From a bacterium D16-56 (GTDB taxonomy: Bacteria; Bacillota; Clostridia; Lachnospirales; Lachnospiraceae), in NCBI GenBank assembly GCA_003611875.1, contig RAYY01000001.1, positions 1 to 64,000 on the forward strand: 64,000 nucleotides of DNA, written 5' to 3'. The notes below the pieces were generated by a model that did no database searches, was not told the DNA's origin, and was given only the letters and a program-made list of their open reading frames with translations. Shown here one piece after another: positions 25,835 through 33,088 of this stretch; position 1 is the first letter of the stretch; every line of letters begins with the position of its first letter. Made by a program: the position numbers and the translations under genes.

Positions 25835-28800
25835 TTACGGCCTGCATCTCTTAAGGTTCCATAACATCTGCGCTGCCTCTGCCCGTGTTAATGCTGCCGG
25901 CAGCTCATCATTGATCGTAATATTAAAATACTGCTCATAAATCTTAATCAAATCCCTGGTCGCCGTACTCTCCGGATTCATCCCGGCATCCATCACTCCA
26001 TTTGTCACAGCCCAGCTCATGCCTTCCTCATACCAGATCGTTCCGCCTTCCGTATCCAAGCCCTCTAACCGCGCTAATGCAGTCACCAGCATCGCACACG
26101 TCATGTGTGCGGCCGGATCGAAGGTCGTCTCCGTCACACCGTAGAACAGATCCCTTGCTGCCACATAATCGACTGCTTCCTTATACCAAGCATCTGCCGG
26201 CACATCTGTAAACTGTCTGCTCCGATCTACGATTTTCACAGTGTCACCATTCACCACCGGCACCACCATTCCGCCTTCAATCAAAGTAGAATCTTCTATT
26301 ATCTGTGTCGATCCGTCCGGATTTACCAGAACTGCTACCGCGCCTGCACCCGATGCTGTCACCGGAATCAATACTTTCACCGGCTCCGTAGTGGCTGCAG
26401 CCGGATTTGCGGCGTCTTGCAGCTTTTCCGTATCTGTATTAACCGTTATCGGTGTTGCATTTGTTATGTCATTGGCCACCGGTACGGGGTCTATCGGCAA
26501 AGTCACCGCCTTATCTTCGCGCTGCGCTGTCTCTGATATCTGCTTCGGCAATCCCACTTCCAGCTTTATTTCCCCCAACGCGCCAGTTGTCGTCATTACT
26601 ACCGTTCCGTCTGACCATTTGACAGTCTCAACCTTCTCCCCTGCAGCATTAGTCGTCGCAATCGTTGAAACTACCTGGCTGACGCTTTCGCTTGCATTAC
26701 CGGAAGACTCTTGTGAGCTATTTCCGGAAGAATTACTTCCTGAAGAACTACTTCCTGAAGAACTACTTCCTGAAGAACTTCCTCCTGAAGAACCACTCGA
26801 TCCGCCTGAACTGCCTCCAGAATTGTTCCCACCGTTTACAATACCTCCCGGTTTTTGGCTGTCGTCTGGCTTTACTGGATCTTTATCGCCTTCCCCAGAA
26901 TCGCCCGGATTGCCTGGTTTCTCCTGGTCGTCTCCCGGTGCATCCGGATCCACCGGCTCATCTGGATCCGTTGACAACACGGTGTCACATATATCGCAAC
27001 GTCCATCACCGTTCTCGTCCACATGTTCACATGTCACAAACTCTCCCGGATCGCCGGGAATCTCTGCAAACGGATCATCAAACTCTACGTTGTAATTCAC
27101 TGTCACGCCTGTCAAACCACCATTATTCAATGCATAGGAGCCGCCATTCGCATTCCATTCACTCTCCGTTCCTCCAAAGTCTATTGTCCGCAAGCCACTC
27201 TTCTGAAACGGCGAACTGACATATACGCCCACTTCATAAATTTTTACTCCCGCAGGAATATACAGATAAGTCAACGCAAAACAGCTGGCAAACATACCTG
27301 AGCTCATCTTCTCTGCCTTCAACGGCAAAGTTACATCTGACAAATACCAGCACCCGCCAAATAAGTCATCTCCCAATGACACTTTCTGCTCTCCCGGCGC
27401 AAATCGTATCTGCACTAAACTACCACACTCGTAAAAGGCTCTATCGCCCACATAGGTAACACTTTCCGGAAAATCCAAATAAGCAATTCCGCAATTTTGG
27501 AACGCCTGCTGACCAATGCTCTCCACGCCCTCATAGAATGTTGCTGACTTCAAACCTTGGCAATTATAAAACGCTTTCTTCCCAATTTCTTTTACACTTC
27601 CAGGCACCGTTATTTCCATCAAACTCGACTCTCCAAACGCCGCCTCTCCAATGCTCATAACTGTCTCAGGGATCTGCACACCCATGATCGAACTTTGATA
27701 AAAAGCATAGCTGCCTATACTTTCCACGCCATCCTCAATCATCACCTGATTGATTATGTCAGCATAATCGTTCCAATCCGGACGGTTACTCTCAGTATAA
27801 TCCGGCATCGCACCGTTCCCGGAGATCGTCAGCATTCCTCCATTGGTCAACGTCCAGCTTAAGCTGCCTTCCGTTCCGCTCTTGAAAATCTCATCTGTGT
27901 CCTGTTCCTCCGAATACCCGACCGGGTAGCGGGTCACAATAAAATTCGCATTCAAAACTTCTGACTTACTCAACGTCCGTCCCCAATGCACACTCTTATT
28001 GTAATTCCCCTCAGCAACCGTCACTCCGCCAGAACCTACTCTAAGTACAATCACAAAGTGGCTGTTATTAATCCGCAGAATGTCTCCCACCCTCACGTCT
28101 TCATACTCGAATCCTCCTCTATCAATCGTCCTTGCCGGAAGATTGCCAAAAGCCTCATCGCTCAGCATAAAGACAAATGCCGCACAGCCAACACCAAGAC
28201 TTGCTCCTTTTACCGAACCGCCCTGAAAACGATAGTATTTCCCCCATTCTCCCTCATCTCCAAACGGCACAAAATTCGTCCAAGTCATTCCCTCATTAAG
28301 CTCATCTTTCATGCCAATCATCGCTTCATAAGCTTCCTCATACGTGGGACAAATCTCAGATGCTCTCGTCATCCCAAAAAGCTGACTTGATAAATCATCT
28401 CCATCTTCGGCTTCCATCAAAACCGGCGCCTTGTCGGACCAAACCCAAACTAAATCCTCCGACTTTTCATCATCCGGAGTTTTCTCTTTGAGAACATCTT
28501 CAAAGTCGTCATTAATTTCCTCATCCTCATGCGTCTCGTCCTCAAGCGTATCGTCTTCAAGCTCCTCGTCCTCAAGCTCCTCGTCCTCAGGCTCCTCGTC
28601 CTCAGCTTCTGCCTTCTGGGCATTGGAAGATGTAGCTTTCATTACCTTCTCCACTCTGTCCTCATCATTAATTTCTGTGTCATACACCTCCTTATCTTTC
28701 TGCTCTCCACTGTCGAGCGCCTTTTTCGACTCGTCAACCTTTGCCAAAACCGTCTGTTCAGGCAATTCAGCGGCAGTAACCGGGCACACGTTGGAAAACG

Positions 28801-28858
28801 TCACCGCAATTACCAGCATCACCGGCAACACCCAGTTTTTTTGTTTCTTTCGTTTCAT
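25835..28858 (-). CDS. SLH-anchored surface protein with peptidase-like and leucine-rich repeat domains
   Basis: The 1007-residue product has a signal peptide (WVLPVMLVIAVTFSNVC, cleavage near AA30). An acidic tract follows at about 84-130, then a domain at 165-315 with Cys225 (GVGCAAFVF), His267 (NNSHFVIVL) and an AEGNYN segment, resembling an NlpC/P60 or CHAP-type cysteine peptidase. BspA-type LRR_5 repeats at about 365-590 come next (e.g. GVESIGSYAFYQSSIMGVQI), then a CDICD metal-binding-like motif, a Pro/Asp and Ser/Gly-rich stalk, and SLH-type repeats at 880-1007 (FTDVPADAWYKEAVDYV). SLH domains attach to cell-wall polymer. AGGAGG lies 9 nt before the ATG at 28858, so the in-frame ATG at 28894 is rejected. 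Catalytic activity of the peptidase-like domain is inferred. Confidence 0.85.
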   Translation of the reverse strand: MKRKKQKNWVLPVMLVIAVTFSNVCPVTAAELPEQTVLAKVDESKKALDSGEQKDKEVYDTEINDEDRVEKVMKATSSNAQKAEAEDEEPEDEELEDEELEDDTLEDETHEDEEINDDFEDVLKEKTPDDEKSEDLVWVWSDKAPVLMEAEDGDDLSSQLFGMTRASEICPTYEEAYEAMIGMKDELNEGMTWTNFVPFGDEGEWGKYYRFQGGSVKGASLGVGCAAFVFMLSDEAFGNLPARTIDRGGFEYEDVRVGDILRINNSHFVIVLRVGSGGVTVAEGNYNKSVHWGRTLSKSEVLNANFIVTRYPVGYSEEQDTDEIFKSGTEGSLSWTLTNGGMLTISGNGAMPDYTESNRPDWNDYADIINQVMIEDGVESIGSYAFYQSSIMGVQIPETVMSIGEAAFGESSLMEITVPGSVKEIGKKAFYNCQGLKSATFYEGVESIGQQAFQNCGIAYLDFPESVTYVGDRAFYECGSLVQIRFAPGEQKVSLGDDLFGGCWYLSDVTLPLKAEKMSSGMFASCFALTYLYIPAGVKIYEVGVYVSSPFQKSGLRTIDFGGTESEWNANGGSYALNNGGLTGVTVNYNVEFDDPFAEIPGDPGEFVTCEHVDENGDGRCDICDTVLSTDPDEPVDPDAPGDDQEKPGNPGDSGEGDKDPVKPDDSQKPGGIVNGGNNSGGSSGGSSGSSGGSSSGSSSSGSSSSGSNSSGNSSQESSGNASESVSQVVSTIATTNAAGEKVETVKWSDGTVVMTTTGALGEIKLEVGLPKQISETAQREDKAVTLPIDPVPVANDITNATPITVNTDTEKLQDAANPAAATTEPVKVLIPVTASGAGAVAVLVNPDGSTQIIEDSTLIEGGMVVPVVNGDTVKIVDRSRQFTDVPADAWYKEAVDYVAARDLFYGVTETTFDPAAHMTCAMLVTALARLEGLDTEGGTIWYEEGMSWAVTNGVMDAGMNPESTATRDLIKIYEQYFNITINDELPAALTRAEAAQMLWNLKRCRP
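26722..26793. repeat. 15-bp tandem repeat encoding the Ser/Gly linker
   Basis: About four imperfect copies of a 15-bp unit (TTCCTGAAGAACTAC on the plus strand) encode the SSSSG repeats of the stalk between the wall anchor and the outer domains. Copy number is likely to vary between strains. Confidence 0.7.
28532..28606. repeat. 15-bp tandem repeat encoding the acidic tract
   Basis: Tandem near-copies of CTCCTCGTCCTCAAG encode the repeated EDEEL pentapeptides after the signal peptide of the surface protein. Confidence 0.7.
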
Positions 28859-28889
28859 TTCTTTGAACCTCCTGTTAATGTGATGATCC

Positions 28890-28942
28890 GGCAACCCAAA
28901 ACGGAGTCGTCAACTCTCGCCCCTCTTAGGGGGATAGTTACC
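28890..28942 (-). promoter_or_regulatory. Three-way-junction leader before the SLH protein gene
   Basis: In the transcript GGTAAC (28942-28937) can pair with GTTGCC (28895-28890). They enclose the hairpins CCCC-TAAGA-GGGG (28932-28920) and GAGT-TGACG-ACTC (28916-28904). The result is a compact three-way junction about 20 nt before the ribosome binding site. No known riboswitch class was recognised. Confidence 0.4.
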
Positions 28943-29088: not shown

Positions 29089-30348
29089 TTACATAATCCC
29101 CGGTACCAGCATGGGAACATACAGAATCATGAAAAACACCAAGACAAGCCCCAGAAGATACGGAACCACTGCCTTGGCAATCCGTTCAATGGGCAGCCCT
29201 GTAATCCCCGAGGCCACAAACAAATTGATGGCTACCGGCGGCGTGATCATCCCAATGGCAATCCCCACCACAAATACGATTCCAAAATGAACCAGGCTGA
29301 TGCCCATGGCCTTCACCAGCGGCAAAAACACCGGCGTCAGAATAATGATGGCAGAAGACGTCTCCATAAAGACCCCTGCAATCAGGATAATCACAGCAAT
29401 CAGCAGCATAATCACATAGGGATTGCTGGAAACACTCAGCACAGAGCTGGAGATCGCCTCTGGAATCTTCCAGTTGGCCAGCACCCATCCAAAGGGACCG
29501 CTGCAGGAGATAATGATCATAATTACCGCAGAAGTCTTGGCGCTGCCCTTCATAATACGGAACAGCTCCTTCCATCCCATGTCCCGATACACAAAGGCAG
29601 ACACAAGAATTGCATAAATCACTGCCACGTCCGCTGCCTCTGAAGGCGTAAAGTATCCGGAAAAAATACCTCCCAGAATAATAAGCGGCATCAGGATTCC
29701 CCAGATCGCCTTTATAAAGGTCTTCCCCACATTTTTAACAGAAAAGGAAGCTCCCTTGGGATAGTTGAATTTTTTCGCCTCTGCCAGAGAGATGGCCACC
29801 AGAATACCGCCCATAAGCACACCGGGAATAAACCCGTTTTTAAACAAGGTGTTCACGCTCTGCTCTGCAATCACCGCATAAAGCACCATGGGAACAGAGG
29901 GCGGTATTACCACGCCGATGGTTCCTGCCGCCGCAATCAGCGCCGCTGACCGCCCCTCATCATACCCTCTCTTTTTCAGCTCCGGAATCAAGGTGGCGCC
30001 TACAGCAGCCGTAGTAGCTGCCCCAGAGCCGGAAATCGCCGCAAAGAACATTCCTGCCAGTACAGAGACAATGGACAAGCCTCCTTTAATCATTCCCAGC
30101 AGGGCCTCTGCAAACTCTACCAGAACCTTAGACACCTTCCCCTTTGCCATCAGATCCCCAGCAAAGATAAAGAAGGGTACGGCAATCAGGGAGAAGGAAT
30201 CCGTAGACGCAAACATCCTCTGAACAATCATCAGCAGGGGAACCTCCCCTTTTGCCATTACTGCCACAGAAGCCAGCACAATGGAAAACGCCACAGGAAC
30301 CCCTAAAAGAAGCATTACAATAAATGTACCAAACAATAAAGCCGCCAT
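29089..30348 (-). CDS. dctM: TRAP transporter large permease subunit (DctM family)
   Basis: The 419-residue product is almost entirely membrane-spanning, with the family's glycine-rich segments FFAAISGSGAATTAAVGATLIP near residue 105 and GMITPPVAINLFVASGITG near 370. DctM is the Na+-coupled transport subunit; with DctQ and the binding protein DctP it imports organic acids or amino-acid-like substrates. It starts 1 bp after the dctQ stop, so the two are coupled. It is the last gene of the operon, followed by a terminator. The T-box upstream suggests an amino acid or a related keto acid as substrate. Confidence 0.93.
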   Translation of the reverse strand: MAALLFGTFIVMLLLGVPVAFSIVLASVAVMAKGEVPLLMIVQRMFASTDSFSLIAVPFFIFAGDLMAKGKVSKVLVEFAEALLGMIKGGLSIVSVLAGMFFAAISGSGAATTAAVGATLIPELKKRGYDEGRSAALIAAAGTIGVVIPPSVPMVLYAVIAEQSVNTLFKNGFIPGVLMGGILVAISLAEAKKFNYPKGASFSVKNVGKTFIKAIWGILMPLIILGGIFSGYFTPSEAADVAVIYAILVSAFVYRDMGWKELFRIMKGSAKTSAVIMIIISCSGPFGWVLANWKIPEAISSSVLSVSSNPYVIMLLIAVIILIAGVFMETSSAIIILTPVFLPLVKAMGISLVHFGIVFVVGIAIGMITPPVAINLFVASGITGLPIERIAKAVVPYLLGLVLVFFMILYVPMLVPGIM

Positions 30349-30349
30349 A

Positions 30350-30847
30350 CTACTCCTCCCCCTTTCCCAACAAATCCATCAGGCTGCAGACAATAGCATC
30401 CAATGCATGAAAGGCCATGATTCCGCAGCCAATGGGAATACAGGTGTACACATACCGCATGGGCAGACGCATGGCAGGGGAAAGCTGCTTTCCCTGCCTG
30501 CCGAAATACTGGATTCCATACCACACGATCAAAACAAACAATATACAGCAAAGTCCGTGAATCACAATCTGCAAAAGGTCCTTTGCCTTGGCCGGCAGGG
30601 CGTCCTGGAGAATAGAAATAGAGATATGGCCGGCATGCTTATACACGCAGCCTGCGCCAAGCAGCGTACTCCAAATCAGCAGATACCGGGTAGCCTCCTC
30701 GCTCCATGCCAGGGAGGTAAAAAAGATGCGGAAAACAATCTGCGCTCCTGTAATCACAACCATAGCGCCCAGCATAAACACAATCACAACCTCCATGAGC
30801 TTATCCAGTATATCGCTGAGCTTATGAATACCATGAACTATCATCAT
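30350..30847 (-). CDS. dctQ: TRAP transporter small permease subunit (DctQ family)
   Basis: The 165-residue product has four predicted membrane helices and the DctQ pattern WSEEATRYLLIWSTLLGAGCVYKHAGHISISIL between helices 1 and 3. It bridges the binding protein to DctM in the membrane. AGGAG lies 8 nt before the first of two adjacent ATG codons. The gene sits 35 bp after dctP and abuts dctM. Confidence 0.9.
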   Translation of the reverse strand: MMIVHGIHKLSDILDKLMEVVIVFMLGAMVVITGAQIVFRIFFTSLAWSEEATRYLLIWSTLLGAGCVYKHAGHISISILQDALPAKAKDLLQIVIHGLCCILFVLIVWYGIQYFGRQGKQLSPAMRLPMRYVYTCIPIGCGIMAFHALDAIVCSLMDLLGKGEE

Positions 30848-30882
30848 ATTGGATTCTCCTTTCGTTCCCCATGCCCTCCTTG

Positions 30883-31977
30883 TTACTGCATTCCTGCAAT
30901 CACTTCCTGGATTCTGGACACATAGTCGCTGTACTCCTCGTACTGGTCATAGACCGGCTGTACTGCCTCCTTAAAGGAAGCCAGATCCGGCTCCTCAATC
31001 ACTTCCATGCCGTTGTCCTTTAACGCCTGAAGCTGGGAGCTTTCCTGATCTGCTACCCATGCACGCTCATACTCTGCCGCCTCCTGAGCCGCATCCAGGA
31101 AAATCTGCTGGGTATCTGCATCCAGGCCGTCAAACAGAGAAGCACTCATGGTAATAATCGCCGTAGAATAGGAATGGCGGTCCAAGGTCACATACTTTTG
31201 AGATTCCCACAGGCTGTAGGAATAAATCACATTAATAGGATTTTCCTGACCCTGTACCGTACCCTGCTGCAGGGCAGTCAGCGCATCGGCCCATGCCATA
31301 GGAGTGGCATTTACATTCATGGCCTGGAAGCTGGCTGTATACACATCATTTTCCATGATTCGGATAGTCATGCCGGAAAGGTCTGCTGCGGTCTCAATCG
31401 GCTTCACACTGTTGGTCAGATTCCGAAAGCCACGCTCTGCATAGGCCAGTCCCTTCAGACCCGAATCCTCCAGGGTATCTAAAAGCTCTCTTCCGATCTC
31501 ACCGTCAAGAACTGCATAAGCCTCCTCATTGCTGGCAAACAGATAAGGCATATCCAACACGCCCATAGCAGAAGAAAAGTTAATGAACGGCCCGCTGGTA
31601 ATGATCCCCATATCCAGGGTTCCGATCTGCATACTCTCCAGCATATCCCGCTCTCCTCCCAAGGTTCCGTTGGGATAAATCTCGATCTCATAAGCGCCGT
31701 TGGTGCGCTCCTTCACCAGCTCGGCAAATTTTTCTGCTGCCACCTGAAAGCTGTCCTGCTCATTTACCGTAGTTCCCAGCTTAAACACTGTGGCGCCTGC
31801 GGAAGCTGCTTTCTCCTCTCCTGCCGCCTCCTGCCCGCCGGCCTCTGCAGCAGTCTCTCCCTCTGCGGCTTTGGCAGTCTGGGTGCTCTGGCTGTCCGAA
31901 GATCCGCCGCAGCCTGCCATACTTAAAACCATTGCCGCCGACATGGCCAGAGCCACGATTTTTGCACTCTTTCTCAT
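30883..31977 (-). CDS. dctP: TRAP transporter substrate-binding lipoprotein (DctP family)
   Basis: The 364-residue product starts with a lipoprotein signal, KIVALAMSAAMVLSMAGCGG (Cys23 lipidated). A low-complexity Ala/Glu/Gly linker follows, then the DctP fold: FKLGTTVNEQDSFQVAAEKF, IYPNGTLGGERDMLESMQIG and MTIRIMENDVYTASFQAM. In this family a conserved Arg in the RIME/RVP region binds the substrate carboxylate; R198 or its neighbour is the candidate. It captures the ligand outside the membrane for DctQM. GGAGG lies 10 nt before the ATG. The gene is preceded by a promoter and a T-box leader, so its expression should rise when a tRNA is uncharged. Confidence 0.93.
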   Translation of the reverse strand: MRKSAKIVALAMSAAMVLSMAGCGGSSDSQSTQTAKAAEGETAAEAGGQEAAGEEKAASAGATVFKLGTTVNEQDSFQVAAEKFAELVKERTNGAYEIEIYPNGTLGGERDMLESMQIGTLDMGIITSGPFINFSSAMGVLDMPYLFASNEEAYAVLDGEIGRELLDTLEDSGLKGLAYAERGFRNLTNSVKPIETAADLSGMTIRIMENDVYTASFQAMNVNATPMAWADALTALQQGTVQGQENPINVIYSYSLWESQKYVTLDRHSYSTAIITMSASLFDGLDADTQQIFLDAAQEAAEYERAWVADQESSQLQALKDNGMEVIEEPDLASFKEAVQPVYDQYEEYSDYVSRIQEVIAGMQ

Positions 31978-32092
31978 AATGATTCATCCTCCTTAATATT
32001 TAGTTGTAAATCTATGCCATCTGCCCTTGTGAAGCTGTTTCTTTTCTGATTCTCCTTCCTTCAGGGCAGAAATGACCGTTTTCTTCCAAAAT

Positions 32093-32487
32093 AAAAAACA
32101 GCCTTCATCTCCTAAGAGACAAAAGCTGCACACTTCTGCGGTACCACTCTTTTTGCTGCACGAGGCAGCCACTTATCCCTGTCAGCCGGTCTGCGGCATA
32201 ACAGGTAGTGCGGTAACGGGCACCTGCCGTTTCAGCCTACACAGACGAAAGGTCCTTCAGCCAAACTGCTCAAAGGGGATTTTCCCAAACATTCAGCCGC
32301 CGTGTCACACCAACCCACGGCTCTCTGCCGACCTCCTGATCCGTACTCTTCCTTATCAACACATTTTCCCTCTAAACCTCCATGCGCCCGGCAACGAACG
32401 CGCCACCAATTATGAAAGCTTGGCGGGCGCATTTGGCATACCTGATTTTAAATCGCCTCCGGCGATGGGGTCTTCATTGTAAAAATA
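32093..32487 (-). promoter_or_regulatory. T-box riboswitch leader of the TRAP operon (specifier probably ATC, Ile)
   Basis: Reading the minus strand, the leader shows the T-box elements in order. Stem I starts with GATAAGGAAGAGTA, followed by AGAGAG at 32326-32321 and a GGTTGGTGTGA loop. The specifier side is GGGAAAATCCCCTTTGAG, in which ATC at 32280-32278 fits the usual GAA-N-codon-N-CC arrangement. The T-box AAGAGTGGTACCGCA lies at about 32151-32137, with TGGTACCGC at 32146-32138 to pair with the tRNA end. A terminator follows (arms CAGC 32128-32125 and GCTG 32102-32099, then six T). An extra GC-rich hairpin (32431-32383) precedes stem I. The Ile assignment is by eye. Confidence 0.85.
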
Positions 32488-32493
32488 TAGCAT

Positions 32494-32522
32494 ATCATAA
32501 CGCAGCCGGAAAGGTTTGTCAA
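32494..32522 (-). promoter_or_regulatory. Sigma-A promoter of the T-box/TRAP operon
   Basis: TTGACA (32522-32517) and TATGAT (32499-32494) with a 17-nt spacer on the minus strand. The start would be near 32487, just before the T-box leader. Confidence 0.85.
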
Positions 32523-32607: not shown

Positions 32608-33088
32608 TTATCCAATAAGAACCCTTTTTCCGGTAAAGCCAAAGCCATATTCCCGAATCCGTTCTTCACTAATTTCTTCTGCCACTAAATCTGATTTATA
32701 ATTCTTATCTTCAATCTGCTTTAAAGCTGCTTTCACTGTATCACCCAGACTATCTTCGTCATCGGGATCATAGACCTTGAATTCCAGAATAATCGCGTCA
32801 TCCTCCTTTTTCCGGGGCTTTAACATCACATCATATCTTCCAAATCCACTTTCCCGATTTGACGTAATCACATACCGGTCATCCAGTTCCACCATAAGCC
32901 CTAATACGAATCCGTAGTAGAACCGTTCCGGTTCCGATCCTGACCATACTCATCCAGAAGAATGATCACTTTCTTTCCATCTGATTTTCCCACCATTCCC
33001 GAATGAACTGTGTCTTATCCACATAAAGACATCCACTTATGATCAAATCGGTAAAATCCTGATGTCCAATACCGATTGTTCTTGTCAT
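32608..33088 (-). pseudogene. Relic of an AAA-ATPase/PD-(D/E)XK nuclease-family gene
   Basis: Three pieces of one family appear in order but in different frames. First is an N-terminal piece beginning MTRTIGIGHQDFTDLI at 33088 with RBS AAGGGGGG, stopped by TGA after about 40 codons. Next is a short KKVIILLDEYGQD (Walker B-like) piece. Last is a C-terminal piece, ERFYYGFVLGLMVELDDRYV through SNRESGFGRYDVML, LEFKVYDPDDEDSLGDTVKAAL and EYGFGFTGKRVLIG. Intact relatives (DUF1703-type, common in Lachnospiraceae and Bacteroidetes) are around 500-550 residues, so most of the middle is deleted. An ATG at 32895 would give only a 95-residue nuclease fragment retaining the E-x-K pair. Confidence 0.75.

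What the first reader, a model, noticed from the sequence alone, without database searches (positions are those of the whole stretch)
29089..32522. TRAP transporter under T-box (uncharged tRNA) control, specifier probably isoleucine
The sequence shows a sigma-A promoter, T-box stem I with AGAGAG, a T-box (TGGTACCGC), a terminator and then dctP-dctQ-dctM. T-boxes normally control aminoacyl-tRNA synthetases, amino acid biosynthesis or known amino acid carriers. A T-box on a TRAP system suggests import of an amino acid or its keto-acid precursor, and ATC as specifier points to isoleucine or branched-chain precursors. An extra GC-rich hairpin before stem I is also unusual.
Basis: partly seen in the sequence, partly recalled or inferred. 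Interest (0 to 1): 0.8.

Follow-up and report, generated by a model that had tools for sequence, protein, structure and literature searches.

The report
Isoleucine-sensing RNA controls organic-acid importer
In some gut and rumen Clostridia, an RNA switch that senses isoleucine shortage sits in front of a three-part acid importer whose genes often travel with isoleucine/valine/leucine-making genes, so the importer probably brings in building blocks of these amino acids, a pairing I found in none of the papers I could search.

Summary
A T-box (RF00230, 120.3 bits, E 4.5e-26) lies at 32112-32368(-) behind a good sigma-A promoter, followed by a 14-bp terminator and dctP-dctQ-dctM. The specifier is AUC (isoleucine). 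Of 37 relatives' loci scanned with Rfam, 21 have a T-box upstream of dctP at gathering score. Among 56 full-length DctP orthologs, 32 carry the T-box (28 at gathering score, 4 by motif only); 31 of the 32 read AUC, one (L023) is odd. New evidence on the transporter's role: 12 of the 56 have ilvD (dihydroxy-acid dehydratase) beside dctPQM on the same strand, in several clades and in both orders, and one lineage has leuA-leuC-leuD-leuB-dctPQM-ilvD. Best reading: isoleucine starvation opens transcription of an importer for a branched-chain amino-acid precursor acid (2,3-dihydroxy or 2-oxo acid). The substrate and the response to tRNA-Ile are inferred, not shown. The 'extra hairpin' is a dispersed ~97-nt genomic repeat. 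The paper searches made found no T-box with a TRAP system.

The parts
32494..32522 (-). sigma-A-type promoter TTGACA-17-TATGAT
   Evidence: 11 of 12 matches; TTGACA is also found upstream of Stem I in 18 of the 20 relatives printed (L027 and L042 read TTGACT)
32373..32469 (-). ~97-nt dispersed repeat (the 'extra GC-rich hairpin') inserted between promoter and Stem I
   Evidence: 53 matches in the window's genome including this one, some in 107-nt tandem; by eye not in the 20 other leaders printed
32112..32368 (-). T-box leader (Stem I to antiterminator)
   Evidence: RF00230, 120.3 bits, E 4.5e-26
32278..32280 (-). specifier triplet AUC (isoleucine)
   Evidence: Rfam alignment; invariant in 22 of 22 rows (L019 and L045 look identical there) and 21 of 21 rows, while the bases on either side vary
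32138..32146 (-). T-box sequence UGGUACCGC (UGGU would pair with a discriminator A)
   Evidence: invariant in 21 of 21
32098..32129 (-). intrinsic terminator that shares its 5' strand with the antiterminator
   Evidence: 97.4% of cells paired across 21 sequences; antiterminator 99.5%
32014..32076 (-). second conserved RNA hairpin between terminator and dctP; function unknown, not needed for the reading given
   Evidence: in 17 sequences 7 of 12 pairs change on both sides, 0 of 500 shuffles as high
30883..31977 (-). dctP, TRAP solute-binding protein (lipobox-like N-terminus by eye)
   Evidence: PF03480 E 4.3e-89; AF2 model of the mature part pLDDT 94.6
30350..30847 (-). dctQ, TRAP small permease
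   Evidence: PF04290 E 1.6e-33
29089..30348 (-). dctM, TRAP large permease
   Evidence: PF06808 E 1.3e-111

Best explanation
This is an isoleucine-responsive T-box attenuator in front of a TRAP importer. When tRNA-Ile is uncharged, its anticodon reads AUC in Stem I and its free CCA end pairs with UGGU, the antiterminator forms instead of the terminator, and dctPQM is transcribed. The importer then takes up a small branched-chain carboxylic acid that feeds Ile/Val(/Leu) synthesis near the IlvD step: most likely a 2,3-dihydroxy acid (2,3-dihydroxy-3-methylvalerate or 2,3-dihydroxyisovalerate), otherwise the matching 2-oxo acid. Shown by sequence: promoter, T-box, AUC, mutually exclusive antiterminator and terminator, operon order, conservation, linkage with ilvD and leuACDB. 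Inferred: tRNA-Ile dependence, substrate, and direction (import, as for other TRAP systems).
For: T-box E 4.5e-26. AUC in 22 of 22 rows with varying neighbours and in 31 of the 32 T-box orthologs in all; the T-box before ileS of this genome also reads AUC (by eye; gene). In the genus, 10 of 10 orthologs have the T-box motif upstream, and none of the 10 paralog loci fetched (of 16 paralog matches) has it upstream. ilvD beside dctPQM, same strand, in 12 of 56 orthologs, 8 with and 4 without a T-box; 10 of the 12 were scanned and pass the TIGR00110 cut-off, the other two pass it. leuA-C-D-B-dctPQM-ilvD on one strand in L241 and L243 (leuD is just under its cut-off). These loci fall in several separate clades of the DctP tree. 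DctP keeps two Arg and an Asn at the motifs that hold the ligand carboxylate in relatives (role read in PMC11668362 section 5). Precedents: 2-acetolactate and pantoate/D-erythronate among TRAP ligands (PMC5812351, passages); TakP binds 2-keto acids and was said to fit a role in supplying Val/Ile intermediates (PMC1839085, passages).
Against: No binding or expression data. The window's own genome has no ilvD beside dctPQM; it has ilvD with ilvB, and ilvC, elsewhere, so it is no obvious auxotroph; 10 of 11 relatives searched have ilvC over the cut-off and the eleventh a fragment at a contig start. In 3 of 4 ilvD-linked genomes searched the linked ilvD is the only one over the cut-off, so it may be there as a member of the Ile regulon and not as a partner of the importer. 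44 of 56 orthologs show no linked ilvD (in some the contig ends too early to tell), and 24 of 56 show no T-box (one, L015, cannot be judged). One T-box (L023) reads UUC or AUU. For the terminator the number of pairs changed on both sides is no higher than in shuffles (3; 121 of 500 as high). tRNA-Ile was not found among the tRNAs of this draft genome looked at, so its discriminator base was not checked.
Confidence: 0.66

Rival explanations
1. The importer carries isoleucine (or all branched-chain amino acids) itself, as known T-box-controlled carriers are thought to do.
For: T-box transporters tabulated in PMC2494555 section 10 (read in full) are assigned amino acids from the T-box; the specifier here is Ile.
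Against: Linkage is to biosynthetic genes (ilvD, leuACDB), which an importer of the finished amino acid does not need; of the closest solved DctPs, 4XEQ falls in a set described as bound to pantoate or erythronate.
Confidence: 0.12
2. The importer carries another organic acid (pantoate, erythronate, a C4-dicarboxylate or another carbon source) and was drawn into the Ile regulon only indirectly.
For: 4XEQ, one of the five nearest solved sequences, falls in a set described as bound to pantoate or erythronate (the ligands of the other four are recalled as the same). 24 of 56 orthologs show no T-box and many have no BCAA gene beside them.
Against: Repeated linkage with ilvD in several clades and with leuACDB, and an Ile specifier in 31 of 32 T-boxes, would be odd for an unrelated substrate.
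Confidence: 0.18
3. The T-box is a relic or stands there by chance and does not control dctPQM.
For: L023 has an altered Stem I and falls below the gathering score; many relatives lack the element.
Against: Specifier, UGGU and the mutually exclusive terminator/antiterminator are kept right before dctP in 21 aligned loci.
Confidence: 0.04

Closest known systems
T-box riboswitches on Ile carriers of the ABC and LIVCS families (PMC2494555, section 10 read in full)
   Same: same RNA class, Ile specifier, transporter as target
   Different: the seven carrier families listed there are MFS, APC, NSS, DAACS, LIVCS, NhaC and ABC; TRAP is not among them, and here the linked genes point to a biosynthetic precursor
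TakP/TakQM of Rhodobacter, 2-keto-acid TRAP system (PMC1839085, passages)
   Same: TRAP system said to fit a role in supplying Val/Ile intermediates
   Different: the passages seen name no T-box; no phenotype was found for the R. sphaeroides mutant; no chain named TakP is among the 60 (of 81) solved sequences shown; no direct comparison with TakP was made
TRAP solute-binding proteins 4nq8, 4p9k/4pak, 4pdd, 4pdh, 4xeq
   Same: closest solved structures by sequence and fold (36-40% identity, TM 0.94-0.96); the carboxylate-binding motifs are kept
   Different: Polaromonas, Verminephrobacter, Bordetella and Desulfovibrio proteins; only 4XEQ is named in the passage that speaks of pantoate or erythronate (PMC11668362 section 5), the ligands of the others are recalled

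Membership tests
T-box riboswitch (RF00230) | match to the covariance model above gathering score | tested here: met
   120.3 bits against 93
T-box riboswitch (RF00230) | specifier triplet in the Stem I bulge | tested here: met
   AUC, invariant in 22 of 22 rows
T-box riboswitch (RF00230) | UGGN bulge in an antiterminator that excludes a terminator | tested here: met
T-box riboswitch (RF00230) | UGGN complementary to the discriminator base of the cognate tRNA | tested here: inconclusive
   no tRNA-Ile among the tRNA loci of the draft genome looked at, typed pattern without match; A73 in tRNA-Ile is recalled
T-box riboswitch (RF00230) | response to uncharged tRNA | not testable with these tools
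   needs a transcription assay or reporter
TRAP transporter (DctP type) | dctP, dctQ, dctM in one operon | tested here: met
TRAP transporter (DctP type) | conserved carboxylate-binding Arg and supporting Arg and Asn | tested here: met
   R206, R185 and N246 in 22 of 22 T-box rows and in the five solved chains aligned; equivalence to the residues named in PMC11668362 and PMC4646407 is by motif, not by an alignment to 4P47 or SiaP
BCAA-precursor transporter | binding of branched-chain hydroxy or oxo acids | not testable with these tools
   inferred from gene linkage only
BCAA-precursor transporter | linkage to BCAA biosynthetic genes in relatives | tested here: met
   13 of 56 orthologs: 12 with ilvD, one more (L235, contig ends in dctM) with leuB and the end of leuD; not met in the window itself

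The most novel reading that the evidence does not exclude
Gut and rumen Clostridia import late intermediates of branched-chain amino-acid synthesis (2,3-dihydroxy-3-methylvalerate or 2,3-dihydroxyisovalerate) shed by neighbours, through a dedicated TRAP system that is switched on by uncharged tRNA-Ile and feeds IlvD: cross-feeding of a pathway intermediate rather than of the amino acid.
Probability: 0.38. Interest if true: 0.78.

Novelty: new variant of a known kind. Interest (0 to 1): 0.62.

Why it matters
T-boxes are used to assign substrates to transporters. Here the RNA names the amino acid, and the linked ilvD/leu genes narrow the likely substrate to a precursor acid, for a TRAP subfamily that I found no assigned function for. 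If true, it adds a transporter class to the T-box regulon and predicts uptake of BCAA intermediates in gut and rumen bacteria, testable with one binding assay and one pair of auxotrophs.

Tried and rejected
A specifier other than Ile: rejected, AUC is invariant with changing neighbours. The extra 5' hairpin as a second sensor: rejected, it is a repeat with 53 matches, itself included. T-box as a general feature of TRAP operons in this genus: rejected, none of the 10 paralog loci fetched (of 16 paralog matches) has the motif upstream; the one chance match (L068) lies inside the gene on the other strand. Auxotrophy as the reason for import: not supported, ilvC is present. A first AF2 model from 16 rows was poor (pLDDT 53.9); a second from 38 rows of the mature part was good (94.6). 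A typed tRNA-Ile-like pattern found nothing, and ARAGORN listed no tRNA-Ile in the tRNA loci given to it.

Paper searches: (T-box, TRAP transporter, riboswitch) 0 papers; (T-box, tripartite ATP-independent) 0; (T-box, isoleucine, transporter, dihydroxy-acid dehydratase) 0; (2 of 6 T-box and TRAP/Dct terms) 536, none of the 15 listed holds 'T-box riboswitch'; (ilvD, TRAP transporter) 2, seen only in the listing; some searches were looked at as listings apart from the papers cited. The library holds open-licence PMC papers only and TBDB itself could not be queried, so such a pairing may be recorded elsewhere.

Limits: two searches scored only the best few candidates in each genome, so their counts are lower bounds. 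Absence of a T-box rests on Rfam at gathering score for the loci and on a motif search within 900 bases for the rest.
Full report
1. What is there. On the minus strand the window holds a sigma-A-type promoter (32522-32494), a T-box leader (32368-32112, RF00230, 120.3 bits, E 4.5e-26), a 14-bp terminator (32129-32098) and dctP, dctQ, dctM. The genome has 10 RF00230 matches at E 0.001, 4 of them over the cut-off; by the family scan of the next gene the other nine lie before leuS, valS, a TrpB-like gene, tyrS, thrS, pheS, an aspartate--tRNA(Asn)-type ligase and ileS, and one (L006) before genes that were not clearly named.

2. Specifier. The Rfam alignment puts AUC at the specifier place. In 22 aligned leaders (window plus 21 relatives; L019 and L045 look identical) AUC is invariant while the base before it is A, U or G and the base after it C, G or A; it is invariant in 21 of 21 in a second alignment without L045. 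G069 (L054), seven of the eight further T-box loci and the eighth, L218, also read AUC by eye; L225 has otherwise altered neighbours. That makes 31 of 32. AUC is 0.99 of Ile specifiers in TBDB (PMC7778990, passages). The exception, L023 (the same contig as L063), has the motif, falls below the gathering score and reads UUC, or AUU in another frame (sequence).

3. Spread. A scan of genome contigs with DctP gave 39 loci. Of the 37 loci L011-L047 scanned with Rfam, 21 have a T-box at gathering score upstream of dctP; L048 and L049, distant relatives, were not scanned. In the window's genus 15 of 24 genomes have some DctP at E 1e-60; 10 of the 24 have the ortholog (over 700 bits; the next match is 260), and all 10 have the T-box motif upstream. 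In an even draw of the family 2 of 397 have it, the window's genome being one. In the genus of Oribacterium sp. C9 it is 3 of 17; in the family of L036's genome 31 of 308. 32 of the 56 have the T-box: 28 at gathering score and 4 by motif only (L023, L221, L225, L233). Of the 24 without, L015 begins 233 bases before dctP and cannot be judged.

4. The new link. In Oribacterium C9 (L027), Lachnospiraceae JC7 (L042), L032 and L036 an ilvD lies after dctM on the same strand. Of the 31 loci, 9 have ilvD beside dctPQM: 7 after dctM (L210, which is L036, L218, L219, L230, L232, L233, L236) and 2 before dctP (L229, L231); in 7 others (L181, L187, L202, L224, L226, L235, L237) the contig ends before the place after dctM can be seen. 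Together 12 of 56. Ten of the 12 were scanned and score over the TIGR00110 cut-off; the other two do so. In L241 (G681) the order is leuA, leuC, leuD, leuB, dctP, dctQ, dctM, ilvD on one strand with short gaps; leuA, leuC and leuB pass their cut-offs, leuD scores 237.6 against 245.85. L243 (G673) has the same order with 97-99% identical leu proteins, and L235 (G674) shows leuB and the end of leuD before dctP; these three are one lineage. No T-box at gathering score was found in L241, L243, L244 or L245. In G419, G421 and G422 the linked ilvD is the only match over the cut-off; G420 has a second.

5. How it would work. The antiterminator (99.5% of cells paired over 21 sequences) and the terminator (97.4%) use the same strand, so only one can form; both fall when the pairing is slid. 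The sequences are close, so changes on both sides of a pair are few: 3 pairs for the terminator (121 of 500 shuffles as high) and 2 for the antiterminator (24 of 500). This is the standard T-box design. With tRNA-Ile charged, transcription stops before dctP; uncharged, dctPQM is made. DctP has a lipobox-like LSMAGC by eye and keeps Arg185, Arg206, Asn246 and Trp229 in 22 of 22 T-box rows; by motif these are the residues that hold a carboxylate in relatives (PMC11668362 section 5 read in full; PMC4646407, passages). The nearest solved chains by sequence and fold are 4nq8, 4p9k/4pak, 4pdd, 4pdh and 4xeq. PMC11668362 names 4XEQ in a set of ten homologs of another TRAP protein, of which those not bound to sugar acids or orotate and not open are said to hold pantoate or erythronate, with the warning that ligands were mostly co-purified; the ligands of the other four are recalled. 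2,3-Dihydroxyisovalerate and 2,3-dihydroxy-3-methylvalerate, the IlvD substrates, resemble these compounds closely (established chemistry). ilvD is the BCAA gene most often linked, and in both orders, so I rank its substrates first and its 2-oxo products second.

6. Against. The window's genome keeps leuB-ilvD-ilvB-serC together and ilvC elsewhere, so import would supplement synthesis. The linkage with ilvD could mean only shared regulation. Many orthologs in ruminant Clostridia show neither T-box nor BCAA neighbour.

7. Known or new. T-boxes on Ile carriers are known, but the seven families in PMC2494555 section 10 do not include TRAP, and the searches found no paper with the terms together. 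TakP is a precedent for a TRAP system said to fit supply of Val/Ile intermediates (PMC1839085, passages). Both halves are known; their union, and the ilvD/leu linkage, appear new within what I could search.

8. Side results. The extra hairpin is a repeat. A second hairpin between terminator and dctP covaries in 17 sequences: 7 of 12 pairs change on both sides, 0 of 500 shuffles reach the covariation score, and slid pairings reach at most 64.6% of cells paired against 93.1%; L027, L032, L036 and L042 lack it by the pattern. Its role is unknown. Clostridiales-1 RNA (RF01699) lies between T-box and dctP in L027, L042 and L074.

Noticed in passing
window 32373-32469: ~97-nt dispersed repeat with 53 matches in the genome (this one included), some in 107-nt tandem, inserted in the leader between promoter and Stem I.
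   Followed up: partly
window 32014-32076: Conserved hairpin GGUCA-UUU-CUGCUG...CAGCAG-U-UGACA between the terminator and dctP, with covariation in 17 sequences; not found by pattern in L027, L032, L036 and L042.
   Followed up: partly
L027:4537-4694, L042:4744-4901, L074:3884-4046: Clostridiales-1 RNA (RF01699) lies between the T-box and dctP in three loci.
   Followed up: no
L028-L031, L033-L035, L040, L041, L043 upstream of dctP: Relatives without T-box share ATGAA...TTTTTCA-like sites just before a TTGACA box, as if a DNA-binding protein replaced the T-box (sequences, by eye).
   Followed up: no
L023:4560-4870 (same as L063): T-box motif before dctP with an altered Stem I whose specifier reads UUC or AUU and not AUC; below gathering score.
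   Followed up: partly
L004 (G000:C77:54235-57479): T-box with a UGG specifier (by eye) before a TrpB-like gene, with a DctM-like gene (34% identical) just upstream of the T-box.
   Followed up: no
L039:6797-7957: A DctP relative (65% identical) without T-box at gathering score has a diaminopropionate ammonia-lyase family gene after dctM.
   Followed up: no
window 32608-32895 and 25835-28894: A short PD-(D/E)XK nuclease-family ORF upstream and a BspA-type LRR/SLH protein downstream of the operon.
   Followed up: no
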